Shown here: one piece after another, positions 2,912 to 19,212 of the stretch | Layout of the letters: every line of letters starts with the position of its first letter | Position numbering within the stretch: position 1 is the first letter of the stretch | From: Alphaproteobacteria bacterium | GTDB lineage: Bacteria; Pseudomonadota; Alphaproteobacteria; Rhodobacterales; Rhodobacteraceae | DNA length: 64,000 bases | Reading direction: 5' to 3' | NCBI GenBank assembly: GCA_030425185.1 | Contig: JAUIAU010000010.1 | Coordinates: forward strand, 1-64,000 | Translations under genes and position numbers: made by a program | The notes under the pieces: generated by a model | The model's database searches: none | Told to the model about the DNA's origin: nothing | What the model saw: the letters and a program-made list of their open reading frames with translations, nothing else

Positions 2912-3448
2912 ATGACCGAGACCCCGACACCGACCCCGCGCGCGCCGCGCTGGATGCGCGTGACGCTGATCGCCTCGCTGGCCGCGAACCTGCTGGTGGT
3001 CGGGCTGGTCGCCGGGGCGGCGCTGAACATGCGGCGCGGCGGCTTCACGCCGCCCGAGCGGATCGACGGTCCGAACCCGATGCTGCGCGCCCTGACCCGC
3101 GAGGATGCCCGGGCCCTGCGCGGCAAGCTGCGCGAGGCCGGGCCGTCGCTGGCCGAGACCCGCGCCGAGTCGCGCCGCACCTTCGAGGCGATCCTGGCGA
3201 CCCTGCGCGCCGAACCGTTCGACGCCGACCGCCTGACGGCCGAGATGACGGCGCTCGCCGCGCTGAACACGCGGCGGCTCGACGACGCCCAGACCGCGCT
3301 GGCCGGGTACCTCGCGGGTCTTGACCCCGCCGCCCGCCGTGCCTTTGCCGACCGGCTGGAGGACGCGCTGCGGCGCGGCCCGGAGGGGCGCGACGGTCCG
3401 CCGCCGCGCAACCGCGACACGCACCGCCCCGAGGGTGCGCGGAACTAG
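2912..3448 (+). CDS. Periplasmic heavy-metal sensor/resistance-like protein (CnrX/Spy-like)
   Basis: N-terminal TM followed by an Arg/Glu-rich helical domain ([34 protein letters not shown]). Confidence 0.6.
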
Positions 3449-4803
3449 GCGGCGTCCTCCGCCTGCGGGGTGATGCGCAGCCGGTTCCGCCCCTGCGCCT
3501 TCGCGGCGTAGAGCGCCCGGTCCGCCCGATCCATCAGCGTGGCGGGGTCGCAGCCGCCCGCACCCGGTCCGCCCATCGCCAGCCCCATGCTGACGGTCGC
3601 CCGCAACACGGTGTGGCCGTCCCGTGCCGTCACCCGGTGCTCGGCCACGAGGCAGCGCAGGCGGTCCGCGATCCGCTCGGCCTCGGCCAGGTCGGTGTCG
3701 GGCAGCACGATCAGGAATTCCTCTCCGCCGATCCGCGCCACGAGGTCCATATCCCGCAGGTTCTCGCGCAGGTGCAGTGCCGCCTCGGCCAGCACGGCAT
3801 CACCGGCGGCGTGGCCGTGGCGGTCGTTGACCTGCTTGAAGTGATCGAAGTCCACGAGGATCACCGCGAAAGCGCGCCCGGTCCGCGCGGCCCGCTCGGC
3901 GATGGCGTCGAGATGGCTGAGCGCGTAGCGCCGGTTGAACAGGCCGGTCAGCGGGTCGATCACGCTCAGCCGCAGGCCCTCCGCGATGTCGCGGCGGCGG
4001 CGGTCCGCGGCTTCCTTGATCGCCAGCCGGTGGGTCAGGCGCAGTCCGAGCTCCTCGGGCGCGACCGGCAGGCACAGCGCGTCGTCGGCCCCCTGGTCGA
4101 GCGCGGCGGCCACATGCACCTCGTCGCCCGGCGGCAGCAGGACCACCATCGCCGCGTGGCGCGTCGCGGGCCGGGCGCGCAGTTCCGCCATGGTATGCAG
4201 CGCCTCTTCCGGGGTTTCCGCCGCGGCCTCGATCACGAAGAGGTCGGGCTGGTCCTTCGAGGCGGCCAGCGCCTCCTCGCGGGTGGCGACGGCGACCCGC
4301 GCGGCGACATGCGGCGCCAAGGCCCGGTGCAGGCGCACCCCGCTGTCGGGCCGGGCCGGGATCACGCCGATCCGCTGCACCGGCGGCGCATCCGGGCGCG
4401 GGCCGGGCAGGGGGTTGTCCTCGGGACCGGCCCCGCGTCCGCGCATCAGGCTGCGGACCCGGGCCAGAAGCAGGGTTTCGTCCAGCGGCTTCGTGAGGAA
4501 GTCGTCGGCCCCGGCCTTGAGACCGCGCAGCCGCGCCTGCGTGTCCGACAGCGCGGTCACCATCACGACGGGAATCGCGGCGGTCTCCGGGTTGGACTTC
4601 AGCGCCCGGCAGACCGCGTAGCCGTCAAGATCGGGCAGCATCACGTCGAGCAGGATCAGGTCGGGCGCCTCGGCGCGCGCGATCTGCAGCGCCTGGCGCC
4701 CGGTGGTCGCCTGCACGACCTCGTAGCACGCGCTGGCCAGCTTGACCTTCAGGACGATGCGGTTGGTCGCCACGTCGTCCACGACCAGGATCCTGCCCGT
4801 CAC
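3445..4803 (-). CDS. pleD: PleD-like response regulator diguanylate cyclase (REC-REC-like-GGDEF)
   Basis: Receiver ([15 protein letters not shown]...[14 protein letters not shown]) and GGEEF output domain ([15 protein letters not shown]). Confidence 0.85.
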
Positions 4804-5712: not shown

Positions 5713-6411
5713 ATGATCCGCGCGGTGATCTTCGACAAGGACGGGACCCTCTTCGACTTCCAGGCGACCTGGGGCGCCTGGGCCGAGACGATGCTGACCG
5801 AGCTCGCGGGACCCGACCAGATCCTGCTGCACCGCCTGTCGCGCGCGCTGGGCTACGACCTCAAGACCCGGCGGTTCCGGCCCGACAGCTTCGTGATCGC
5901 CGACACCGCCGAGGCCGTCGCGGTCGTCCTCGCCGCCGAGATGCCCGGTCACCGGCCCGAGGACCTCCTCGACCGCCTGAACGCGGCCGCCGCCGAGGCG
6001 CCGCTGGTGGAGGCCGCACCGCTGGTACCGCTGCTGCTGGAACTCCAGAGCCGGGGCCTCGGCCTCGGGGTGGTTACCAACGACGCCGAGGCCCCGGCTC
6101 GCGCCCATCTCGCCGAGGCCGGGGTGCTCGACGCCTTCGACTTCATCGCGGGCTACGATTCGGGGTTCGGCGCGAAACCGGCGCCGCAGCCGCTGCTCGC
6201 CTTCGCCCGCGCGCTGGGCCTGCCGCCGTCCGACATCGTCATGGTCGGCGACAGCACCCATGACCTGAAGGCGGGACGCGCGGCGGGCATGGCGACGCTC
6301 GGGGTGCTGACCGGACCCGCCGAAGCGCCAGAGCTTGCCCCCTGGGCCGACGCGATCCTGCCCCATGTCGGGCACCTGCCCGAGTGGCTGGATAGCAGGA
6401 CGCGGCCCTGA
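5713..6411 (+). CDS. HAD-IA family hydrolase (phosphoglycolate phosphatase-like)
   Basis: AVIFDKDGTLFDF and MVGDSTHDLKAGRAAGM motifs. Confidence 0.85.
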   Translation: MIRAVIFDKDGTLFDFQATWGAWAETMLTELAGPDQILLHRLSRALGYDLKTRRFRPDSFVIADTAEAVAVVLAAEMPGHRPEDLLDRLNAAAAEAPLVEAAPLVPLLLELQSRGLGLGVVTNDAEAPARAHLAEAGVLDAFDFIAGYDSGFGAKPAPQPLLAFARALGLPPSDIVMVGDSTHDLKAGRAAGMATLGVLTGPAEAPELAPWADAILPHVGHLPEWLDSRTRP

Positions 6412-6537: not shown

Positions 6538-8100
6538 ATGACCATGGCCGATGTTGCAGAGCGCCGCAAACGGGCGGGCGGGCGCGCGGGCGGGGCCACG
6601 CGGCGCGGCACGGCGGCGATCCACCAGATGCCGTGGCGCATTCCGGTCAACACCGACCGTCCGACCGAGCCGCTGACCGAGGAGGGCGTGCAGGCGATTC
6701 ATGACGGCGCCATGCGCATCCTCGAGGAGATCGGGATCGAGTTCCTGAACGAGGAGAGCCTCGAGATCTTCCGCGAGGCGGGCTGCACCGTGGACGGCAC
6801 CAACGTCCGCATGGGCCGCGACTGGGTGATGGAGATGGTGGCCCGCGCGCCCGCGTCCTTCACGATCACGCCGCGCAACCCCGACCGCGCCATCACCATC
6901 GGCGGCAACCACATGGTGTTCGTCAACGTCTCGTCACCGCCGAATTACTGGGACCTCGAGACCGGCAAGGTGCCGGGCACCCGCGCCCATTGCGCGAACC
7001 TTCTGCGGCTGACCCAGTACTTCAACTGCATCCACGTTGCCGGCGGCTACCCGGTCGAGCCGGTGGACATCCACGCCTCGGTCCGCCACCTCGACGTGCT
7101 CTTCGACAAGCTGACGCTGACCGACAAGGTCGCGCATGCCTACAGCCTCGGCAAGGAGCGGGTCGAGGACGTGATGGAGATGGTCCGCATCGCGGGCGGG
7201 CTGACCGACGCCGAGTTCGAGGCCACGCCCCGGATGTACACCAACATCAACTCGACCTCGCCGCTCAAGCACGACATCCCGATGATCGACGGCTGCCTGC
7301 GCTGCATCCGCCGCGGTCAGGCGGTGATCGTCACGCCGTTCACTCTGGCGGGCGCGATGGCGCCGGTGACCATGGCGGGGGCGGTGGCGCTGTCGATCGC
7401 CGAGGCACTGTCGGCCATCGCGCTCTTCCAGTACGTCAGGCCCGGCTGCCCCTGCGCCATCGGCACCTTCACCTCGAACGTGGACATGAAGTCCGGCGCC
7501 CCCGCCTTCGGCACGCCCGAATACATGCGCGCGACCCAGATGACGGGGCAGCTGGCGCGGTTCTACGGTCTGCCGCTGCGCTCGTCCGGGGTCTGCGCGG
7601 CCAACGTGCCCGACGGGCAGGCGATGTGGGAAACCTCGAACAGCCTCTGGGCCGCGGTGCAGTCCGGGACCAACATGGTCTACCACGCCGCCGGCTGGCT
7701 GGAGGGCGGGCTGATCGCCAGCCCCGAGAAGTTCATCATGGACTGCGAGGTCCTGCAGATGATCCAGCGCTATTTCGAGCCCGCCGTGACCGCCACCACC
7801 CCCGGCGACATCGCCCTCGACGCGATCCGCGAGGTCGGCTGCAACGGCCATTTCTTCGGCACCCAGCACACGCAGGACCGCTACACGACCGCCTTCTACC
7901 AGCCGTTCATCAGCGACTGGCGGAACTACGAGGCCTGGCACCTCGGCGGCGCGGTCTGGACCGCCGAGCGCGCGCACCGTGCCTACAAGCAGATCCTCGC
8001 CGACTTCGAGGCCCCGCCGATGGACGTCGCGATCCGGGAGGAACTGACCGCCTTCGTCAGCCGCCGCAAGGCCGAGGGCGGCGCGCCGACCGACTTCTGA
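6538..8100 (+). CDS. Trimethylamine methyltransferase (MttB/MtgB-like) family protein
   Basis: 520-aa ORF with no internal amber codon; MttB-family features (EEIGIEFLNEESLEIFREAG; CPCAIGTFTSNVDMKSGAPAFGTPEY). Confidence 0.8.
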   Translation: MTMADVAERRKRAGGRAGGATRRGTAAIHQMPWRIPVNTDRPTEPLTEEGVQAIHDGAMRILEEIGIEFLNEESLEIFREAGCTVDGTNVRMGRDWVMEMVARAPASFTITPRNPDRAITIGGNHMVFVNVSSPPNYWDLETGKVPGTRAHCANLLRLTQYFNCIHVAGGYPVEPVDIHASVRHLDVLFDKLTLTDKVAHAYSLGKERVEDVMEMVRIAGGLTDAEFEATPRMYTNINSTSPLKHDIPMIDGCLRCIRRGQAVIVTPFTLAGAMAPVTMAGAVALSIAEALSAIALFQYVRPGCPCAIGTFTSNVDMKSGAPAFGTPEYMRATQMTGQLARFYGLPLRSSGVCAANVPDGQAMWETSNSLWAAVQSGTNMVYHAAGWLEGGLIASPEKFIMDCEVLQMIQRYFEPAVTATTPGDIALDAIREVGCNGHFFGTQHTQDRYTTAFYQPFISDWRNYEAWHLGGAVWTAERAHRAYKQILADFEAPPMDVAIREELTAFVSRRKAEGGAPTDF

Positions 8101-8169
8101 GCCGGGGCGTTGAGGGTTTCTTAAGCCTCCGGGCGTAGGTCGCGGGACGGCCAACCCCGGAGCCACCCG

Positions 8170-8757
8170 ATGCACGGACTCGTCAACCGCTCGCTGCAGT
8201 GTTTCATCCGCGACACCTACGGCGAAGACCCCTGGACCGCGACCGTGGCCCGCGCGGGCCTCGGCGCGACCGAGTTCGATTCGCTCGAATGCTATGACGA
8301 CGCGCTGAGCGAGGCGCTGATCGGGGCCGCCAGCGCGGTCCTGAACAAGCCCCGCGCGGCGATGCTGGAAGACCTCGGAACCTACCTCGTCGCCACCCCC
8401 GGCAGCCAGAACGTCCGCCGCCTGCTGCGGTTCTCCGGCACCGGGTTCGAGGCGTTTCTCTACGCGCTCGAAAACCTGCCCGACCGGGCGCGGCTGGCGA
8501 TCCCCGACCTCGACCTGCCCGCCCTCGAACTGCGCCGGACCGGGGCGGGGGAGTTCGTGCTGGCCGTCCGCTGGCGGACCCCGGACGCCGCCTGCGTGCT
8601 GATCGGCCTCCTCCGGGCGATGGCCGACGATTACGGCGCGCTCGCGCTCTTCGAGCACGCGCCCGGCGACCACGGGTCCGAAGCGATCCGCGTCCAGCTT
8701 CTCGACACCGGTTTCGCGGAGGGGCGGCGGTTCGACCTCGCCGGGGCCGCCCGATGA
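8170..8757 (+). CDS. Degenerate heme NO-binding (H-NOX/HNOB) domain protein
   Basis: MHGLVNRSLQCFIRDTYGEDPW...LLEDLGTYLV...LLRFSGTGFEAFLYALENL...VLIGLLRAMADDYG. Confidence 0.75.
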   Translation: MHGLVNRSLQCFIRDTYGEDPWTATVARAGLGATEFDSLECYDDALSEALIGAASAVLNKPRAAMLEDLGTYLVATPGSQNVRRLLRFSGTGFEAFLYALENLPDRARLAIPDLDLPALELRRTGAGEFVLAVRWRTPDAACVLIGLLRAMADDYGALALFEHAPGDHGSEAIRVQLLDTGFAEGRRFDLAGAAR

Positions 8758-9791
8758 GCGCCGCTCGCGATCCGCTGACCGAAGGGCGCGTGATCGGCCT
8801 GTCGGGGGCCGCGCTGGACCTGCTCGTGCCGTGGCACCTCTGGATCGGGCCCGCGGGCCGCATCGTCCGCGCCGGGCCGACCGTCACCCGCATCGTCGCG
8901 CCGCCGGGCGAGACGCTGACCGGGCGCGATCCCTTCACGCTGCTCGACATCCTGCGCCCCTATCCGGTCCGCGATCTCGCGCGCCTGCTCCTGCTGAAAG
9001 GGCACCGCTTGCGGGTCCGTCTGCAGGCGCACCCCGACCTGTCGCTGGCCGGCATGGTGGTGCCGCTGCCCGGCGGCGGCGGGGCCTTCCTGACCCTGTC
9101 GCCCGGCGCGGCCCTGGTCGAGATCGTGCGCCGCTTCGACCTGACGCTGGACGATTTCGCCCCCACGGACCTGACCGCCGAGATGCTGTTCCTGATCGAG
9201 GCGAAGTCGGCCGCCTTCCGCGAATCGCGCCGCCTGAACGAACGGCTGCGCGGCGCCAAGACCGTGGCCGAAGCGCAGGCGATGACCGACACCCTGACCG
9301 GCCTCGCCAACCGCCGCGCCGCCGATGCCGCGCTGGCCGGGCTGACCGCGGCACCGGGGCCGCGCTTCGGGCTGATGCATGTGGACCTCGACCACTTCAA
9401 GGCCGTGAACGACACGCTGGGCCATGCCGCCGGCGACGCAGTGCTGCAGGAGGTGGCCCGCGTCCTGCGCGAGGAGACCCGGCGCGACGACGTGGTGGCC
9501 CGGGTCGGCGGCGACGAGTTCCTCGTGATCCTGCGCGATTGCGACGATCTCGGACTGCTCGACCGCATCGCCCGCCGCATCATCGCAAGGCTGGAGGAGC
9601 CGCTCGACCGGGACGGACGGCCCTGCCGGATCTCGGCCAGCATCGGCACCACGGTCTCCAGCTTCTACGACGATCCCGCCGCCGCCCGGATGCTGGAAGA
9701 CGCCGACCGCGCGACCTATGCCTCCAAGTCCGGCGGCCGGGCCCGCCACACCATACACGTGCCCGATGGTCCGGAGGGATCGATGCACTAG
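8754..9791 (+). CDS. HNOBA-like N-terminal domain fused to a GGDEF diguanylate cyclase
   Basis: Overlaps the H-NOX-like gene (ATGA); VPWHLWIGPAGRIVRAGPTV HNOBA-like start; intact RVGGDEFLVILRDCDD. Confidence 0.8.
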   Translation: MSAARDPLTEGRVIGLSGAALDLLVPWHLWIGPAGRIVRAGPTVTRIVAPPGETLTGRDPFTLLDILRPYPVRDLARLLLLKGHRLRVRLQAHPDLSLAGMVVPLPGGGGAFLTLSPGAALVEIVRRFDLTLDDFAPTDLTAEMLFLIEAKSAAFRESRRLNERLRGAKTVAEAQAMTDTLTGLANRRAADAALAGLTAAPGPRFGLMHVDLDHFKAVNDTLGHAAGDAVLQEVARVLREETRRDDVVARVGGDEFLVILRDCDDLGLLDRIARRIIARLEEPLDRDGRPCRISASIGTTVSSFYDDPAAARMLEDADRATYASKSGGRARHTIHVPDGPEGSMH

Positions 9792-10026: not shown

Positions 10027-10464
10027 TCAGACCTCCAGCCAGATCGTCACCGGCCCGTCATTGACCAGCGACACCGCCATGTCGGCCCCGAAACGCCCGG
10101 TCGCGACCGGCACGCCGAGCGCCTGCAGCGCGGCCGCCGTCGCTTCGTAGAGCCGTGCGCCCTCGTCCGGCGGGGCGGCGGTCGAAAAGCCGGGCCGGTT
10201 CCCCGAGCGCGTGTCGGCCGCCAGCGTGAACTGCGAGACCACCAGCGCCGCGCCGCCGATGTCCAGCAGCGAGCGGTTCATCTTCCCCGCCTCGTCCTTG
10301 AAAATCCGCAGCTTGGCGATCTTCGCGGCCAGCGCCGCCGGTTTCTCCGGCCCGTCGCCCTGCATCGCGCAGACCAGCGCCAGCACGCCCGGCCCGATCT
10401 CGCCGATCACGGCGCCGCCGACCTCGACCCGCGCCATGCTGACGCGCTGGATCAGCGCCCTCAC
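10027..10464 (-). CDS. dtd: D-aminoacyl-tRNA deacylase (GTG start)
   Basis: [31 protein letters not shown]...[25 protein letters not shown]. Confidence 0.9.
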
Positions 10465-11384
10465 AGCTCGGCCCGGCGGGGCGGGTTGGCCCCGGCGCGC
10501 GAGACCGTGACCGCCGCCGCGCGCACGCCGAGGTCGAGCGCGGCCCGCAGCCCGTCCTCCGGCAGTCCCGCCGCCAGCGCGTCGCGGCTCAGAAGCCCCG
10601 CGTCGTTCAGCCCGGCCAGCAGCCCGGCGTTGAACGTGTCGCCCGCGCCGACGGTATCGACCACTTCGACCCGTCGCGCCGCAACGCGGACCGCGCCGCC
10701 TGCGGTGTACCCGGTCACGCCCTCCGCGCCCTCGGTGATGCAGACCAGTTTCGGCCCCTTCGCCAGCACCGCGCTTGCCAGCGCCGCAAGGTCGCCCGGC
10801 CCGAACAGCCAGTGCAGGTCCTCGTCCGACAGTTTCACGATGTCCGACGCCGCCAGCATCCGGTCGATCCGGGCGCGATAGACGGCCTCGTCGCGGATAA
10901 AGCCGGGGCGCACGTTCGGGTCCAGCATGATGACCCGCCGCCCGGCCTCGCGCAGGCAGAGCGTCTCGTAGCTCCGCGCGCAGGGCTCGACCGCCAGCGA
11001 GATGCCCCCGAAGAACAGCGCCTCGACCCCGTCGAGATCGCCGGGCAGGTCCGCCTCGGCCAGCATCCGCCCCGCCGTGCCCTCGTCGTAGAAGGCGTAG
11101 CGCGCCTGCCCGTCGGTCAGCGTCACGAAGGCCAGCGTCGTGGGCCGGTCCGAGCGCGCGGCGCGTCCCGCGTCCACGCCGCTGTCGGCCAGCGCCGCCT
11201 CCAGCACCTGCCCGAAGAGGTCGGTCGAGAGCCCGGTGAAGAACCCGGTCGGTGTGCCCAGCCGCCCCAGCGCGATGGCGGTGTTGAACACCGCGCCGCC
11301 CGCGTAGGGGGCAAAGGCCGCCTCGCCCGAGACCGCCGTGCGCGGCAGCATGTCGATCAGGGCCTCGCCCGCACACAGGATCAT
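10461..11384 (-). CDS. PfkB family carbohydrate kinase (fructokinase-like)
   Basis: [13 protein letters not shown]... and [21 protein letters not shown]. Confidence 0.88.
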
Positions 11385-11486
11385 CGCCGTCTCTCCCTTC
11401 CGCGCCGTCCCCGACGCGTTCCGTTATCGCTAACATCGGCCTCTTGGCTAGCGTCACCAGGCACGCGGCGCAATCCCGACGTGGCC

Positions 11487-12614
11487 TCAGTTGCCGCCTT
11501 TCGCCGCCAGGATCGCGCCGATGATGCCGGCCACCAGCAGGCCCAGCACCACCGCACCCGCGATCTTCCACGCCGACCAGGGGCGTTCGCCCTGCACCTT
11601 GCCGGTCTGCCCGTTCACCACGAAGCGATAGGTCTTGCCGCGATACTTGTAGGCCGCGATCCAGACCGGCAGCAGCACATGCTTGAAGGTGACCGCACTG
11701 ACGTCGGTGTCGACCCGGTGCACCTGTTGCCGATCCCCGCCGATGTCGAACTTCACGTCGCGCAGGATCACCCGGTCCATGTAGGCCCGCGCGGTATCGA
11801 GGCCCTCGGGCAGCTCGACGGTATAGGCCTCGGCCCGGAATCCGGCGAGGATCTCGGGCGTGTAGGGCGTCATCTCGGACAGGTCCCAGGGCTCGAGCGC
11901 GTCGGTCAGGTCGCGCGGCAGCGAGCGCGACGCCAGCACCAGCACGTCGTCGAAGAACCGCGCGACCCGGCCGCTGACCGGGGTCCAGCGGACCTTCTGG
12001 ACCTGCACGCTCTCCATCTTGCCGTCGCGCATCCGGCTTTCGGTCACGTAGTAGACCGTTCCGCGCTGGCCGGAATAGCTGCTCTTGGTCTGGGCGTCGT
12101 AGGTCCAGAACGGGACGTAGATCCCCTCCAGCCGCCGCCCCTTGCGGGCGTATTGCTGCAGGCCGTTCGGCGCGAACCAGAGCCGCCCGAGCCAGTCGGT
12201 CATCGCCTGCTTGGCCGTCCGTTCGTCCAGCGCGAAGGGCAGCACGCCCTTCGGCTTGATGTGCCGGCTCTCGCCGGTGTCGGCCACCACGGGCGTCGCG
12301 CAGAACGGGCATTCGGTGGCATGGACCGCCGGGTCGAACTCGACCTGCGCGGCGCAGTTCGGGCAGGTGGTGACGCGGGTCACCTCGGTCTCGGCGACGT
12401 CGAGCCCCTTCAGCGCCGCGAGATAGTCGATCTCGAGGATCTTGCCGGGGGCGGGGGCCATGCCCTCGATCGCCTGCCGGTGGCCGCAGTGGTCACAGAC
12501 CAGCTCGGTCGCGCCGGGCTGGTAGCGCAGGTCCGCACCGCAGGCCTCGCAGGGGAAGCGGTGCAGGTCCTTCGGTGCGGGCGGAGGGGGCGGGGCCGCC
12601 GTCGTGTCGCTCAT
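11487..12614 (-). CDS. TFIIB-type zinc-ribbon membrane protein (YdjG-like)
   Basis: CxxC pairs ([41 protein letters not shown]...ECPFCATPV) and a C-terminal TM. Confidence 0.7.
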
Positions 12615-12621
12615 GGCCGCC

Positions 12622-13746
12622 TCAGACGCCGGGCGGCGGGGGCGGCGGCAGCACGGTGAAGAGCTGCGCCAGCTCGGTCACCTCCTCGGCCTTCTTCCAG
12701 CCGTCCTGGCCCTGCGTCCAGACGAAGGTCTCGCGGGTCAGGGTGCCCTCGGTTACCATCCGCCCCAGCGACGCCTTCGAGAACGGGCCCTTGGTCGCGC
12801 CGTTCTCGGCGATGTGCCAGACGTGCTCGACCGGCGGCGGGGGCGGCGGCGGCGGGGCGGCTGCCGCCGGGGCCGCGGGCCGCGCACCCCACGGCCCTTG
12901 CGCCATCTGCGCGCCCATCGCCATGCCGAGCCCCGCGCCGATCCCGGCGCCCATGCCGCCGTCGCCACCCGGGTTCTGGGCCGCTGCCGTCATCGCCTGC
13001 GCGGCCGAGAACTGCTGGAACTTCGCCAGGTCGCCGACGATCCCCATCGAGGTGCGCTTGTCGAGCATCCCCTCGACCTCGGGCGGCAGCGAGATGTTCT
13101 CGATGTAGAGCTCGGGGATCGCCAGACCGTAGGCCTCGACCGCCGGGTTGATCGCCCCGGTCACCAGCTTGCCCAGGTCGGCGGTGTTGGCCGCCATGTC
13201 GAGCACCGGGATCTGCGAGCCGGCCAGCACCCGGCTGACCTCCTGCACGATGATGTTGCGGATCTGGAAGCTGATCTCGTCAGCCGTGAACTCGCCGTCG
13301 GTGCCGACGATCTCGGACATGAAGCGCCCGGCATCCTTGACCCGGATCGAGTAGGTCCCGAACGCCCGCAGCCGCACCGGCCCGAACTCCGGGTCACGGG
13401 TCATGATCGGGTTCTTCGTGCCCCATTTCAGGTCGTTGAAGCGGGTGGTGCTGACGAAATAGATCTCGCTCTTGAACGGCGACTTGAAGCCGTGGTCCCA
13501 GTGCTGGAGCGAGGTCATGATCGGCATGTTGTTGGTCTCGAGCATGTAGAGACCGGGCGTGAACACGTCCGCCATCTGTCCCTCATGGATGAAGACCGCG
13601 ACCTGCCCCTCGCGCACCGTCAGCTTGGCGCCGTACTTGATCTCGTGGCCCTCGCGCTCGAAGCGCCAGACCATCGTGTCGCGGGTGTCGTCGGTCCACT
13701 CGATGACGTCGATGAACTGACCGGAGAGGAAGTCGAAGATGGGCAT
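12622..13746 (-). CDS. SPFH domain protein (YdjI-like) with C-terminal GYF_2-like domain
   Basis: MPIFDFLSGQFIDVIEWTDDTRDTMVWRFEREGHEIKYGAKLTVREGQVAVFIHEGQ; C-terminal VWHIAENGATKGPFSKASLGRMVTEG. Confidence 0.85.
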   Translation of the reverse strand: MPIFDFLSGQFIDVIEWTDDTRDTMVWRFEREGHEIKYGAKLTVREGQVAVFIHEGQMADVFTPGLYMLETNNMPIMTSLQHWDHGFKSPFKSEIYFVSTTRFNDLKWGTKNPIMTRDPEFGPVRLRAFGTYSIRVKDAGRFMSEIVGTDGEFTADEISFQIRNIIVQEVSRVLAGSQIPVLDMAANTADLGKLVTGAINPAVEAYGLAIPELYIENISLPPEVEGMLDKRTSMGIVGDLAKFQQFSAAQAMTAAAQNPGGDGGMGAGIGAGLGMAMGAQMAQGPWGARPAAPAAAAPPPPPPPPVEHVWHIAENGATKGPFSKASLGRMVTEGTLTRETFVWTQGQDGWKKAEEVTELAQLFTVLPPPPPPGV

Positions 13747-13754
13747 GGGCGGGT

Positions 13755-13955
13755 CTACTTCTGTTTGGAGGATGCGGACGAAGAGAAGGCTGACCCTCCG
13801 GCAGGGACTTTCCGCGCGCGAGCAGACGCAGCGGCGGATGCGGGTGTCTTCTCTAAGAAGCGCCCGGTCTTCGGTTCCCGGTTGATGGTCGTGCCGGACC
13901 AGCGTTCACCGCCGTTCTTGCCGACCCGGTATCCCTCGTACAACGTCTTAACCAT
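13755..13955 (-). CDS. 66-aa hypothetical protein overlapping the DUF6338-like gene
   Basis: MVKTLYEGYRVGKNGGERWSGTTINREPKTGRFLEKTP; 8-nt overlap with the upstream ORF. Confidence 0.55.
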   Translation of the reverse strand: MVKTLYEGYRVGKNGGERWSGTTINREPKTGRFLEKTPASAAASARARKVPAGGSAFSSSASSKQK

Positions 13956-14565
13956 TCGTATCCTCCTCCAAGGGGATGAACTCGATCGAGCGAAGTTCGG
14001 AGGTGTCTATCCACGCAGACCTGCGCGGATTCACCAGGTGCCATATGCCATCCTCTGCAACAGAGTAGACATCCTCAAGGTAGATTCCGCCCTTTTCTCT
14101 CGGTGCGCTGGCGATTGAGCGCTCTCCGACAAACCCAAAGATCTCCTTCCCGTCCGCAAAACGAAGGATCAGGTATGTCGGACCCGCGAGATCGTCGAAG
14201 GCAAACTCGAATGCCGAATTTACCGGGCGGACGGTCGGCATGACGATGCGTCTGAGCCCCTCAGGAAACCAGCCCCGCGTCGCCAGCCATCCGACGAGTG
14301 CACCCAGCACCATAGGTTGCACGACGTTTTGTAGAACGAGAAACCACGCAGGAGTCGGGGAGGGAAGCGTGCTTTCCAGCCAGCCGAGCGAGCCGAGGGC
14401 AACGATCTGATTGACCAGGCTTAGGATAAGGGACTCGATCAGTGTTTCGTTGATCCGAGGGCGTTCGCCGGCAACGAACCAACTCCGCACGGACATGAAG
14501 ACGAAACCCGCCAGAAAATAGCGGACGAAGAACTCCAGCGTCTCTGGGGCGAGGAGTTGCGTCAT
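13948..14565 (-). CDS. DUF6338-like membrane protein
   Basis: Several TM segments followed by a soluble C-terminus (GPTYLILRFADGKEIFGFVGERSIASAPREKGGIYLEDVY...WHLVNPRRSAWIDTSEL); lower GC than neighbours. Confidence 0.65.
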   Translation of the reverse strand: MTQLLAPETLEFFVRYFLAGFVFMSVRSWFVAGERPRINETLIESLILSLVNQIVALGSLGWLESTLPSPTPAWFLVLQNVVQPMVLGALVGWLATRGWFPEGLRRIVMPTVRPVNSAFEFAFDDLAGPTYLILRFADGKEIFGFVGERSIASAPREKGGIYLEDVYSVAEDGIWHLVNPRRSAWIDTSELRSIEFIPLEEDTNG

Positions 14566-14568
14566 CGA

Positions 14569-15477
14569 TCAGCTTTCCCCGCCGAGCTTTTCGGCGGCGA
14601 GGCGCGTGACGATGGGGCGGGCCTCGGCGGGGGTCATGCCGGGGCGCAGGCGCGGGTCATAGAGGATCGACAGCAGGATCTCGTCATGCGTCGTCAGAAG
14701 CGCGAATTCCTCGTCGTCGTTGAAGATCGAGGGCCGCGCGGCGGGGCTGTCGTTGGCGAGGCCGAGGCCCTGCGCCAGTTCCTCGTGCAGGCAGGACAGC
14801 CGCAGCAGGTCGGGATGTTCGGCCTTGATGACGGCGATCGCCGCCACGTAGGTGTCCGGGTTCGTCCGGTCGGAGAAGGCATAGACCGAGCAATAGGTGT
14901 AGCGGTCCATCCCGGTGATGCTGGCGACCGTCGCCGGATCGATGCCGGGCACCAAGGACCGCAGCAGCGGCTCCGCGGCGCGCTGGCTGTCGGCGTCGAG
15001 GAACAGCACGTGGTAATTCGCGTTGCCGCCCTGCGTGACGCTGATCGGGTGGCCGGTCAGCCGCGACAGGCGCTCGGCGTAGCGGGCCAAGTTGGCGCGG
15101 TCGGTGGCCTCCTGCGCGGCGGGCACGGCGTCCGAGAAGACCGCCCGCATCCGCACCGGCTGCGCCCAGCGGCGCAGGCGCGAGGGCGTCTGCTGCGCCA
15201 CGAAGCGCCCGTTGCGGACGGCATACTCGTCATAAAGCGCGATCCGCTCGAAATTGGCCACCAGCGCGGCCCGGGTGATCGGCGTGTCGGGTCCCCCGCC
15301 GTCGCGACGCAGCAGCCCGCGCGCCAGCAGCCGCTGCTCGGCGGCGCGGTAGTAGTTGGACAGCGCGAGGCTGGCGGCCGAGGGCCGGGTGACCTCTGGC
15401 GCGGCCGGTGCCGCCACCGGGGCGGGCGGCATCTCGCAGCCCGCGAGCGCGGCGACCATGGCCGCCGCGCCCAGCAT
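14569..15477 (-). CDS. DUF2927 domain lipoprotein
   Basis: MLGAAAMVAALAGCEMPP lipobox; LRLSCLHEELAQGLGLANDSPAARPSIFNDDEEFALLTTHDEILLSILYDPRLRPGM. Confidence 0.8.
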   Translation of the reverse strand: MLGAAAMVAALAGCEMPPAPVAAPAAPEVTRPSAASLALSNYYRAAEQRLLARGLLRRDGGGPDTPITRAALVANFERIALYDEYAVRNGRFVAQQTPSRLRRWAQPVRMRAVFSDAVPAAQEATDRANLARYAERLSRLTGHPISVTQGGNANYHVLFLDADSQRAAEPLLRSLVPGIDPATVASITGMDRYTYCSVYAFSDRTNPDTYVAAIAVIKAEHPDLLRLSCLHEELAQGLGLANDSPAARPSIFNDDEEFALLTTHDEILLSILYDPRLRPGMTPAEARPIVTRLAAEKLGGES

Positions 15478-15500
15478 CCGGGTCAGGGGGCGCCGGTGGC

Positions 15501-16691
15501 TCAATTCGGAACCGCCGTTCCGGCCGTGTCGCCGGTCTTGTCGCCGCGTGCCTTGGCGGCGGCGAGCGTGTCGCGCAGTTCGGTTTCCATCTTCTTCAGC
15601 TCGACCTCGGCGGCGGCCCGGCGCGCCTTGCCCTCGTCCGCGATCTGCAGGCTCTCGTTGATCGTGGCGATCAGGTTGGCGTTGGCCGCCTTCACCGCCT
15701 CGATGTCGAAGACGCCGCGCTCCATCTCCTCGCGGATCACCTTGTTGGCCTGCCGCAGGTTCTCGGCATTGGCCTGCAACAGCTCGTTGGTCAGGTCGTT
15801 CGCCTCGCGCACGGCCTTCGCGGCCTCGCCCGAGCGCTGGATGGTGACGGCCTGCGCGAGCTGGGTCTCCCACAGCGGCACCGTGTTGACGAGCGTCGAG
15901 TTGATCTTGGTGACCAGCGACTTGTCGTTCTCCTGCACCAGCCGGATCGAGGGCAGGGACTGCATCGTGACCTGCCGCGTCAGCTTCAGGTCATGCACCC
16001 GGCGCTCCAGGTCGTCGCGGGCCGCGCGCAGGTCGCGCAGTTCCTGCGCGGCCATCACCTGCTGCTCCTCGGGCGCGGCCTCGACGGCGGCGGCCTTGGC
16101 CGGGATCTCGTCGGTGTCGAGAACCCGCAGCTTCTCCTCGCCGGCGGCGATGTAGACCGCGAGCGCGTCGTAGAACTTCAGCGTCTTCTCGTAGAGCACG
16201 TCGAGCGACTTGATGTCCTTCAGCAGGGTGTGCTCATGCGCCAGCAGGTTCTCGGTGATCCGGTCGATCTGGCCCTGCACCTCCTCGTAGCGGGCGGCGA
16301 ACATGGCGATGGGCTTGGCGCGGCCCAGCAGGCGGTCCCACCAGCTCTGCTTGCGCCCGACGCCCAGTTCCTCGGGGTTGAAGCCCCGGATGGTCGAGAC
16401 GATCTCGCGCAGGCTCTCGCCTGCCGGGCCCACGTCCTTGTTGCGCACGTCGGCCAGCATCGCCTGGCTGATCTCCTGCAACTCGGCTTGTGCCGCCGAC
16501 CCGAATCGCACGATCGAGTTGGTATCGCCCATGTCGATCTCGCCCATCGCCTTGCGGATCTCCTCCGCGACGGGCGGCGTCGCCTTCTCAAGCGGCACGA
16601 GCTCGGTCGAGGGCACGGGCAACAGCGCCTGGCTCACCTTCTCCACGTCCTGGAGGGCGGCGGCGGCCTGCTGGCGGACGGTATCGGACAT
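15501..16691 (-). CDS. Toxic anion resistance (TelA-like) protein
   Basis: TelA-family coiled coil; IRGFNPEELGVGRKQSWWDRLLGRAKPIAMFAARYEEVQGQIDRI. Confidence 0.9.
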   Translation of the reverse strand: MSDTVRQQAAAALQDVEKVSQALLPVPSTELVPLEKATPPVAEEIRKAMGEIDMGDTNSIVRFGSAAQAELQEISQAMLADVRNKDVGPAGESLREIVSTIRGFNPEELGVGRKQSWWDRLLGRAKPIAMFAARYEEVQGQIDRITENLLAHEHTLLKDIKSLDVLYEKTLKFYDALAVYIAAGEEKLRVLDTDEIPAKAAAVEAAPEEQQVMAAQELRDLRAARDDLERRVHDLKLTRQVTMQSLPSIRLVQENDKSLVTKINSTLVNTVPLWETQLAQAVTIQRSGEAAKAVREANDLTNELLQANAENLRQANKVIREEMERGVFDIEAVKAANANLIATINESLQIADEGKARRAAAEVELKKMETELRDTLAAAKARGDKTGDTAGTAVPN

Positions 16692-16739
16692 GGTCTCTCT
16701 CCTGTCAGGGAATCGCTTTTTCCGGTGTCTATCGGGTCG

Positions 16740-17633
16740 TCATGTTCGGGCGGTGACGCCCTCGCGGGCGAGGCGGTCGCGCAGGACCCCGATCTCGATA
16801 TCGAGGTCCGAGCGGTCGTCGAGCAGCAGCTTCTCGGTACGCGCGGCAAACTCGTCGCCGAGGTCGCGCAGCAGCGCCAGGTAATCGGCGCGGGCCTGCG
16901 CATCGCGGGTGCGGGCGTAGAAGTCGGCGAACTTGATCGTCGCGTCCCGCGCGCCCAGCAGGTAAACCGACAGGTACTTCCGGGCCGCGGTCAGGTCGCG
17001 CGGATCGGCCTCGACCTTGCGGAACATCGCGCGGGCGCGGGCCTGGAACGCCTCCAGCGCGCGCTCGGCCTCCCGGTCCTTGGCCCGCAGGATCGCGTCC
17101 GACATCGCCGCCAGATGCTCTTCCGCCGCCTCGACGGCGCTGGCGACCCGGTTGGTCTGGAAGGTGTCGACCCCCTCCAGCCCCTTGTCCTTCAGCGGAT
17201 CGGGGCCGAAGGCCGCGAAGTGCAGCGCCGCCCCCAGCACCGCGAAGAGGACCGGCGCCACCAGCCCGGCCTCGTGGCTGATCCCGGCGAGGCCCAGCCC
17301 GATCCCGGTCGCGAGCGAGGCGAGGATCTTGCGCGGCACGGCCGGGCGGCGGGCGATGGTGCGGGCGTCATAGGCCTCCTCGGCCTTCAGCCCCTCGCGC
17401 AACAGCCAGGCCGCCAGCAGCAGGACGCCGACCGCGCCGAGCGCCACCGCCATCATCACCGGCGGCTTGAAGAAGGCCATCGCGAGGATCGGCAGCGGCG
17501 CTGCGAACAGCAGGTTGACCCGCGCCCCGATCTTCGAACGCGTCACCCCCGCGAGGATCGCCGGATCATCGGCGCGCGGGGCCGGACCGGTGCTGCCGCC
17601 GGGCGAGTACTTGCCGCCGTATCGCTGGGCCAT
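16740..17633 (-). CDS. XpaC-like (5-bromo-4-chloroindolyl phosphate hydrolysis) family protein
   Basis: Two TM segments plus coiled coil; RKYLSVYLLGARDATIKFADFYARTRD; adjacent to telA. Confidence 0.75.
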   Translation of the reverse strand: MAQRYGGKYSPGGSTGPAPRADDPAILAGVTRSKIGARVNLLFAAPLPILAMAFFKPPVMMAVALGAVGVLLLAAWLLREGLKAEEAYDARTIARRPAVPRKILASLATGIGLGLAGISHEAGLVAPVLFAVLGAALHFAAFGPDPLKDKGLEGVDTFQTNRVASAVEAAEEHLAAMSDAILRAKDREAERALEAFQARARAMFRKVEADPRDLTAARKYLSVYLLGARDATIKFADFYARTRDAQARADYLALLRDLGDEFAARTEKLLLDDRSDLDIEIGVLRDRLAREGVTART

Positions 17634-17636
17634 CGG

Positions 17637-17720
17637 TCAGAGCCCCCAGCCGAAGCCGGCATAGGCATAGAGCCCCAGGAGCGCGGCATAGGCCACGTAG
17701 CGCAGGCCGGTCGAGGACAT
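17637..17720 (-). CDS. Candidate 27-aa single-TM small protein
   Basis: Reverse-strand ATG...TGA encodes MSSTGLRYVAYAALLGLYAYAGFGWGL, immediately upstream of xpaC. Confidence 0.35.
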   Translation of the reverse strand: MSSTGLRYVAYAALLGLYAYAGFGWGL

Positions 17721-17793
17721 GGCAAGCCTTTCTCTAGCGTCTCGTGCCCGAATATAGGCAATGCGCCCGGCCGCCGCTACAGCCGCGAAGGGG

Positions 17794-18708
17794 TTAACGT
17801 CGCGGGGTTTTCCCCCTCGGGGGGCGCCCGCCCGCGCCGCCGGGCCCCGCCGCCGGTTTCCGCCCCGGCGCCTTGCCGGGTCCCCGGGTCTGCCCCGGCT
17901 TCGGGCCCGCGCCCGGTTTCCCCGGCGTCTTGCCGCGCTGCGCCTTCGGCTTCAGCGGCGCGGGCGCGTCCGGGGCAAGGCCCAGCTGGTCCCGCACGAT
18001 CTTCGGCCGGATCTCCTCGACCTGGCCCGGCTCCAGCCCGTCGAGGCGGAACGGCCCGTAGCTGATCCGGATCAGCCGGTTCACCGCCAGTCCCAGCGCC
18101 GACATCGCCCGCCGGATCTCGCGGTTCTTGCCCTCGCGCAGGCCCACCGTCAGCCAGGCATTCGCCCCCTGCTGGCGGTCGAGCGTCACCTCCATCGGCT
18201 GGAACCGCTCGCCCTCGACCTCGATCCCGCGCCGCAGCCGGTCGAGGAGCGCCTCGTCGGGCTGGCCGTTGACCCGGACCCGGTAGCGCCGGAGCCAGCC
18301 GGTCGAGGGCAGTTCCAGCCGCCGCTTGATTGCGCCGTCATTGGTCAGCAGCAGCAACCCTTCCGAGTTCAGGTCCAGCCGCCCGACCGAGACCACGCGC
18401 GGCATCTCGGGCGGCAGCGCGTCGAACACCGTCTCGCGCCCCTTCTCGTCCTTCGCCGAGGTCACGAGGCCCAGCGGCTTGTAGTACCGCCAGAGCCGCG
18501 GCGGCTCCGGCTCCTTCAGGGGCTGGCCCTCCACGGTGATCCGGTCGCGCTCGGTCACGTTCAGCGCGGGGCTGTCCACGGTCTTGCCGTTCACCGCGAC
18601 CTTGCCGTCTCGGATCATCTCCTCAGCGGCGCGGCGCGAGGCGACACCGGCCCGGGCAAGAACCTTGGCGAGGCGCTCGCCGGGCGGAGGGGAGGGGTCG
18701 GCAGACAT
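17794..18708 (-). CDS. Ribosomal large-subunit pseudouridine synthase (RluB-type)
   Basis: S4 domain (RLAKVLARAGVASRRAAEEMI) and VGRLDLNSEGLLLLTNDG catalytic motif; basic Pro/Gly-rich tail. Confidence 0.88.
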   Translation of the reverse strand: MSADPSPPPGERLAKVLARAGVASRRAAEEMIRDGKVAVNGKTVDSPALNVTERDRITVEGQPLKEPEPPRLWRYYKPLGLVTSAKDEKGRETVFDALPPEMPRVVSVGRLDLNSEGLLLLTNDGAIKRRLELPSTGWLRRYRVRVNGQPDEALLDRLRRGIEVEGERFQPMEVTLDRQQGANAWLTVGLREGKNREIRRAMSALGLAVNRLIRISYGPFRLDGLEPGQVEEIRPKIVRDQLGLAPDAPAPLKPKAQRGKTPGKPGAGPKPGQTRGPGKAPGRKPAAGPGGAGGRPPRGKTPRR

Positions 18709-18753
18709 GGGCGGCCTCTTGCGGGGCGGGAGAATTCCCGGCATCCCCGATCC

Positions 18754-19212
18754 ATGACCCCGTTTCGCCCCCATATGCAAGCCGCGCTCGACGAGGCCCG
18801 CGCCGCCGCCCGGCGCGGCGAGGTGCCGGTGGGCGCGGTCCTGGTGGGCCCGGACGGGCAGGTGCTGGCCCGCGCGGGCAACCGCACGCGCGAAGGCCAC
18901 GACCCCACGGCGCATGCCGAGATCCGGGTGATCCGCGACGCCTGCGCCACCCTCGGGACCGAGCGTCTGCCGGGCTGCGATCTCTACGTCACGCTGGAGC
19001 CCTGCGCGATGTGCGCCGCCGCCATCGCCGCCGCCCGCATCGCCCGGCTCTACTACGGCGCCGACGACCCGAAGTCGGGCGGCGTCCGCCACGGCGCCCG
19101 GGTCTTCGCCCATCCGCAGGCGCACCATGTCCCCGAGGTCTATGACGGTATCGCCGCGCGCGAGGCCGAGGACCTGTTGCGCGACTTCTTCCGGGGACTG
19201 CGCGACAACTGA
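18754..19212 (+). CDS. tadA: tRNA-specific adenosine deaminase / nucleoside deaminase
   Basis: HAEIRVI and LEPCAMCAAAI zinc motifs. Confidence 0.88.
   Translation: MTPFRPHMQAALDEARAAARRGEVPVGAVLVGPDGQVLARAGNRTREGHDPTAHAEIRVIRDACATLGTERLPGCDLYVTLEPCAMCAAAIAAARIARLYYGADDPKSGGVRHGARVFAHPQAHHVPEVYDGIAAREAEDLLRDFFRGLRDN

What the first reader, a model, noticed from the sequence alone, without database searches (positions are those of the whole stretch)
8170..9791. H-NOX-like protein without the heme-ligand His or YxSxR motif, coupled to an HNOBA-GGDEF cyclase
Seen: the ORF has the H-NOX fold signature (MHGLVNR..., LLEDLGTYLV, GLLRAMADDYG). Where heme-binding H-NOX proteins carry the proximal His (FL..L..LH), it reads FLYALENLPDRARL (Pro). 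Counting back from GLL, the YxSxR positions read V-R-W-R-T. The downstream gene overlaps it by 4 nt and encodes an HNOBA-like domain plus an intact GGDEF. Established: H-NOX proteins bind heme through that His, and H-NOX/diguanylate cyclase pairs exist. Inference: this may be a heme-independent sensor or scaffold controlling c-di-GMP, through an unknown ligand or as a pure protein-protein regulator.
Basis: partly seen in the sequence, partly recalled or inferred. Interest (0 to 1): 0.7.

Follow-up and report, generated by a model that had tools for sequence, protein, structure and literature searches.

The report
Heme-ligand-less H-NOX paired with cyclase
This gene pair encodes a gas-sensor-type protein that has lost the parts needed to hold its heme, next to an enzyme that makes the bacterial signal c-di-GMP; it belongs to a large, already described group ("Group 5 H-NOX") whose trigger is still unknown.

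Summary
The ORF at 8170-8757 is a true H-NOX-fold protein (Pfam HNOB E 7e-20; AlphaFold pLDDT 92.6; best solved match Nostoc H-NOX, TM 0.80-0.86). Pro104 stands at the proximal-His position and V-R-W-R-T at YxSxR. The downstream gene overlaps by 4 nt and encodes an HNOBA/PAS domain, a signalling helix and a GGDEF with intact A- and I-sites.

It is not new. Kumar & Spiro 2017 noted the missing axial His in Paracoccus H-NOX, and Lee-Lopez & Yukl 2022 defined "Group 5 H-NOX" (<10% with the His, mostly Pro; GGDEF, MTTB and HAD neighbours). The window matches each point.

What I add: about 69% of sampled genera in this family carry a homologue. In 203 members the residue is Pro 159, His 14, other 30. 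His and non-His interchange at least 6-10 times on the tree. The YxSxR Ser and Arg columns are among the most variable, and even D. shibae Hnox (His-bearing, reported NO sensor, same genus code as the window) lacks the full motif. The cyclase is adjacent wherever the contig reaches. The window genome lacks both nitrite reductases.

Most likely a heme-independent protein partner that restrains the cyclase; this is inferred, not shown.

The parts
8170..8757 (+). Group 5 H-NOX (HNOB fold) gene, 195 aa, intact
   Evidence: Pfam HNOB E 7e-20; AlphaFold pLDDT 92.6; Foldseek to Nostoc H-NOX TM 0.80/0.85
8159..8162 (+). GGAG, likely ribosome-binding site of the H-NOX gene
   Evidence: read directly in the sequence
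8479..8481 (+). codon CCC, Pro104 at the proximal heme-ligand His position (His105 of Nostoc H-NOX)
   Evidence: phmmer alignment and 203-row alignment
8566..8580 (+). V133-R-W-R-T137 in place of Y-x-S-x-R (heme propionate site)
8754..8757 (+). ATGA start/stop overlap of the two genes
   Evidence: the same -4 offset in 128 of 195 relatives
8754..9791 (+). diguanylate cyclase gene, HNOBA/PAS - signalling helix - GGDEF, 345 aa
   Evidence: Pfam; AlphaFold pLDDT 93.0
8772..9260 (+). HNOBA (H-NOXA-type PAS) domain plus signalling helix, residues 7-169
   Evidence: partner profile matches sGC beta1 206-383 at E 2e-8 and 2p04 at E 4e-6; PAS-like strands and long helix 140-176 in the model
9279..9743 (+). 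GGDEF domain, residues 176-330
   Evidence: Pfam GGDEF E 3.4e-40
9480..9491 (+). RxxD inhibitory (I) site R243-D246, spaced 5 residues before GGDEF
   Evidence: both residues invariant in 54 partners
9507..9521 (+). GGDEF active-site motif, residues 252-256
   Evidence: invariant in 54 partners
6538..8100 (+). MTTB (trimethylamine methyltransferase family) gene, a usual Group 5 neighbour; context only
   Evidence: Pfam MTTB E 2.3e-227; same-strand upstream in 112 of 197 relatives with enough flank
5713..6411 (+). HAD hydrolase gene, a usual Group 5 neighbour; context only
   Evidence: Pfam; upstream in 106 of 197 relatives

Best explanation
The pair is a Group 5 H-NOX/diguanylate cyclase module. 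The H-NOX protein keeps the fold and, most likely, a partner-binding surface, but it has lost the heme ligand and the heme-propionate motif. It therefore acts as a heme-independent protein regulator of the cyclase, docking on the HNOBA/PAS and signalling helix and holding c-di-GMP synthesis down. In effect it would be a standing mimic of the activated form, in which the iron-histidine bond is broken. Shown here: the fold, the residue losses, the constant coupling, and relaxed constraint at the heme site with strong constraint elsewhere. Inferred: no heme in vivo, direct docking, and the inhibitory direction (borrowed from P. denitrificans genetics and from D. shibae).
For: His105, Trp74, Tyr134, Ser136 and Arg138 are invariant in the seven canonical H-NOX used as outgroup. 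In 203 Group 5 proteins they are Pro 159/His 14, Leu 197, Cys 102/Val 61, and no consensus for Ser and Arg; the Ser and Arg columns rank 138th and 148th of 153 in variability. His and non-His change at least 10 times on the best tree, at least 6 on well supported branches, so the position is not held by selection. Family-specific residues (E67, D68, R83, R84, R87, F88 and the ADDYG motif at 152-156) are at least 97% conserved in the Pro class and kept in the His class, apart from one D at E67. The cyclase gene follows in 200 of 203 loci, and the other 3 end at a contig edge. In P. denitrificans the hnoX mutant underproduces and the cyclase mutant overproduces biofilm, which the authors read as H-NOX inhibiting DgcA (PMC5588039). 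The window genome has no NirK or NirS.
Against: A His-bearing member, D. shibae Hnox, is reported as a heme NO sensor (PMC8846402, PMC7232146), so heme binding is possible on this scaffold even without Tyr and Ser of YxSxR. The hydrophobic pocket residues (F96, L97, L100, P117) are retained, so the cavity may still hold something. No heme-binding assay, complex model or pocket volume could be made here. c-di-GMP has not been measurable in P. denitrificans (PMC12582929).
Confidence: 0.52

Rival explanations
1. The vacated pocket binds another small or hydrophobic ligand (for example a fatty acid, quinone or tetrapyrrole without iron ligation), and that ligand switches the cyclase.
For: Pocket-lining hydrophobic residues stay conserved: F96 in 202/203, L97 in 196/203, L100 in 184/203, P117 in 203/203, and Trp74 replaced almost uniformly by Leu73 in 197/203. 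Nostoc H-NOX takes a non-heme drug (4iae, BAY 60-2770 bound, named).
Against: No conserved polar residue that would read a common ligand was found at the propionate site; Ser and Arg positions have no consensus. Conserved hydrophobics may only keep the fold.
Confidence: 0.23
2. The protein still binds heme, with a different axial ligand or none, and senses NO as in D. shibae Hnox.
For: D. shibae Hnox works as an NO sensor although it reads C-x-W-x-R at YxSxR. Most non-His members carry a His six residues earlier, and half of the group carries a Cys at the Tyr134 position.
Against: The window protein has Tyr98 and Val133 at those two positions, so it has neither substitute. The -6 position is about 240 degrees around the helix from the ligand site (inference from helix geometry). 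Nitrite reductase genes are not significantly commoner in His-bearing genomes: 6/10 against 43/124, Fisher p 0.17.
Confidence: 0.18
3. The H-NOX gene is drifting toward loss and no longer regulates anything.
For: H-NOX is only 49% identical (median) to relatives, while the neighbouring MTTB is 78%. Two of 137 homologues have an in-frame stop.
Against: The ORF is intact, codon-biased and well folded in the model. It is retained in 137 of 199 genomes sampled with invariant non-heme residues and always with its cyclase.
Confidence: 0.05

Closest known systems
Group 5 H-NOX, type case Paracoccus denitrificans H-NOX/DgcA (Pden_3719/Pden_3720)
   Same: Proximal His replaced, mostly by Pro in the group; gene overlaps a GGDEF gene; MTTB and HAD hydrolase neighbours (PMC8738867, PMC5588039)
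   Different: Nothing defining found. The window genome lacks NirS and NirK, whereas P. denitrificans is a denitrifier
Dinoroseobacter shibae Hnox/Dgc1 (Dshi_2815, here L106)
   Same: Same genus code as the window genome, 46% identical H-NOX, adjacent GGDEF cyclase with -4 overlap, MTTB upstream
   Different: Has the proximal His and an Arg at the Arg138 position; reported as a heme NO sensor that inhibits Dgc1
Canonical heme H-NOX (Nostoc Alr2278, sGC beta1)
   Same: Fold, start of chain, Pro117 and hydrophobic pocket residues
   Different: No proximal His, no YxSxR, Trp74 replaced by Leu
Soluble guanylate cyclase alpha subunit (from general knowledge)
   Same: An H-NOX domain that does not carry heme, in a regulator with a PAS and coiled coil leading to a cyclase
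   Different: The alpha H-NOX is fused in the same chain and works in a heterodimer; here it is a separate protein and the output is GGDEF. The analogy was not tested beyond a structural match at TM about 0.5 to chain A of sGC
Vibrio cholerae heme-free H-NOX redox switch
   Same: Heme-independent signalling by an H-NOX fold
   Different: That case keeps the His and uses a Cys-zinc site; Group 5 has no conserved Cys set (PMC8738867)

Membership tests
Group 5 H-NOX (Lee-Lopez & Yukl 2022) | HNOB fold and sequence similarity to the cluster seeded with P. denitrificans H-NOX | tested here: inconclusive
   HNOB fold met, E 7e-20; 137/199 family genomes hold a homologue, mostly 45-54% identical. The P. 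denitrificans sequence itself was not identified and aligned, so cluster membership rests on the shared features below
Group 5 H-NOX (Lee-Lopez & Yukl 2022) | Proximal His absent, usually Pro | tested here: met
   Pro104; family 159 Pro, 14 His of 203
Group 5 H-NOX (Lee-Lopez & Yukl 2022) | No conserved Cys | tested here: met
   Best Cys column is 102/203 and the window has Val there; C11 86/203, C41 2/203, C142 5/203
Group 5 H-NOX (Lee-Lopez & Yukl 2022) | GGDEF, MTTB and HAD neighbours | tested here: met
Canonical heme-binding H-NOX | Proximal His | tested here: not met
   Pro104
Canonical heme-binding H-NOX | YxSxR motif | tested here: not met
   V-R-W-R-T
Canonical heme-binding H-NOX | Binds heme and NO | not testable with these tools
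   needs purified protein
HNOBA-GGDEF diguanylate cyclase | HNOBA/PAS domain and signalling helix | tested here: met
   sub-threshold alone; 43/54 partners match HNOBA; profile to sGC beta1 PAS + coiled coil E 2e-8; PAS-like strands and long helix in the model
HNOBA-GGDEF diguanylate cyclase | Intact GGDEF and RxxD sites | tested here: met
   RRDD-VVARV-GGDEF at 243-256
HNOBA-GGDEF diguanylate cyclase | Makes c-di-GMP | not testable with these tools
   needs enzyme assay

The most novel reading that the evidence does not exclude
Group 5 H-NOX proteins as a class are heme-independent cyclase regulators in which the heme ligand is optional and evolutionarily labile, with heme/NO sensing lost and regained (or kept only in scattered lineages such as D. 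shibae) on a constant H-NOX/HNOBA-GGDEF scaffold.
Probability: 0.45. Interest if true: 0.6.

Novelty: new member of a known kind. Interest (0 to 1): 0.35.

Why it matters
The missing ligand in this group is a published open question: how do these proteins sense anything (PMC8738867)? The window protein (Pro) and D. shibae Hnox (His) come from the same genus code and keep the same partner architecture, so they give a natural pair for testing whether heme is needed to control the cyclase. If it is not, many "NO sensor" annotations in this family need rewording: a homologue is present in 137 of 199 genomes sampled across its genera.

Tried and rejected
(1) A substitute heme ligand nearby: a His six residues before the ligand site is common in relatives and a Cys at the Tyr134 position is found in half, but the window has Tyr98 and Val133. 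(2) Link between a retained His and NO production by NirK/NirS: 6/10 against 43/124, p 0.17, and only one independent pair on supported branches; no conclusion. (3) A second, canonical H-NOX elsewhere in the genome to take over NO sensing: none, a single HNOB match. (4) Sequencing artefact or pseudogene: rejected (intact ORF, codon bias, conservation). (6) Iyer 2003, Plate & Marletta 2013, Islam 2024 and Bedrunka 2018 are not held as full text; their content is cited through other papers.

Full report
What is there. The ORF at 8170-8757 (195 aa) overlaps the ORF at 8754-9791 (345 aa) by four bases. The first is an H-NOX-fold protein: Pfam HNOB E 7e-20, closest solved relatives Nostoc Alr2278 and sGC beta1, AlphaFold mean pLDDT 92.6, and Foldseek best hits Nostoc H-NOX at TM 0.80-0.86. 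Nostoc His105 aligns with Pro104, and Y-Q-S-T-R with V-R-W-R-T. The second is a diguanylate cyclase: GGDEF E 3.4e-40 with the product-inhibition RxxD site spaced correctly. Its N-terminal part is sub-threshold for HNOBA alone, but 43 of 54 partners from related loci match HNOBA. The partner profile matches the PAS plus coiled coil of sGC beta1 (E 2e-8) and the solved histidine-kinase chain 2p04 (E 4e-6), and the model shows PAS-like strands followed by a helix at 140-176.

How widespread. Of 199 genomes drawn across the window's family (almost all of different genera), 137 hold a homologue. In 385 genomes drawn across the class, HNOB matches are rare (18), and those outside the family that I could align carry the proximal His; one divergent weak match (L236) was not aligned. 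Across 203 distinct Group 5 proteins the ligand position is Pro 159, His 14, Gln 6, Asn 5, Ala 5, Ser 4 and others. The family-wide set alone gives 101 Pro and 11 His, one of the His cases being a canonical H-NOX. The further 80 loci were chosen by similarity to the window protein, so the family-wide set is the fairer count.

What constraint remains. In seven canonical outgroup proteins His105, Trp74, Tyr134, Ser136 and Arg138 are invariant. In Group 5 Trp74 is Leu in 197/203, Tyr134 is Cys or Val in 163/203, and the Ser and Arg columns rank 138th and 148th of 153 in variability. None of the 14 His-bearing members has the full YxSxR motif. By contrast E67, D68, R83, R84, R87, F88 and the ADDYG motif at 152-156 are at least 97% conserved in the Pro class and almost always shared by the His class. 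On a quick maximum-likelihood tree made without the ligand column, His/non-His needs at least 10 changes, at least 6 forced by well supported branches; for instance L042 (Pro) and L215 (His) are close sisters. Many deep branches of that tree are weak, so gain cannot be told from loss.

Coupling. A GGDEF gene follows directly in 200 of 203 loci; the other three run into a contig end (combined, since each script missed a few that the other found). The start/stop overlap is -4 in 128 of 195. MTTB lies upstream on the same strand in 112 of 197, and the HAD hydrolase in 106 of 197.

The D. shibae comparison. Genome G035, given the same genus code as the window genome, is D. shibae DFL 12 (the first 6 kb of its contig C2 are identical to NC_009955.1). 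Its only homologue (L106) has the His and reads C-x-W-x-R at YxSxR. D. shibae is reported to have a single H-NOX gene, whose NO-bound product inhibits the adjacent Dgc1 (PMC6473078; PMC7232146; PMC8846402). That L106 is Dshi_2815 is inferred from its being the only homologue and lying next to a GGDEF gene.

Literature. Kumar & Spiro 2017 (PMC5588039) state that P. denitrificans H-NOX, like that of R. sphaeroides, lacks the axial His, overlaps a GGDEF gene, and appears from mutants to inhibit DgcA. [quoted passage not shown] The window protein shows each of those features; the P. denitrificans sequence itself was not aligned here. I therefore call the finding a new member of a known kind.

Mechanism. 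I favour a heme-independent protein partner that restrains the cyclase through its HNOBA/helix module (0.52). Rivals are another ligand in the pocket (0.23), heme held some other way (0.18) and decay (0.05). The direction of regulation is borrowed from relatives. The window genome has neither NirK nor NirS, so it is not expected to make NO by nitrite reduction; this weakens, but does not exclude, an NO role. His-bearing genomes are not significantly richer in nitrite reductases.

Noticed in passing
8170-9260 against 6538-8100: H-NOX (median 49% identity to relatives) and the cyclase N-terminus (40%) diverge much faster than the neighbouring MTTB (78%), while the GGDEF domain is at 56%; possibly a fast co-evolving pair.
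   Followed up: partly
3445-4803, - strand: A response regulator with GGDEF (PleD-like) lies about 3.4 kb upstream of the H-NOX gene, so two c-di-GMP synthesis genes are close together.
   Followed up: partly
L128 (G116) and L133 (G177): Two of the 137 homologues have an in-frame TAA and may be decaying copies.
   Followed up: no
L236: A weak HNOB match from another alphaproteobacterial family (E 7.8e-15) that did not pass the Group 5 profile; possibly a different H-NOX-like family.
   Followed up: no
window Tyr98 and Val133 / relatives: 129 of 203 Group 5 proteins have a His six residues before the ligand position and half have a Cys at the Tyr134 position; the role of these is unknown.
   Followed up: partly
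10461-19128, - strand: Ordinary genes: PfkB kinase, zinc-ribbon-like protein, SPFH/GYF protein, TelA, a Halogen_Hydrol-family protein and an RNA pseudouridine synthase.
   Followed up: no
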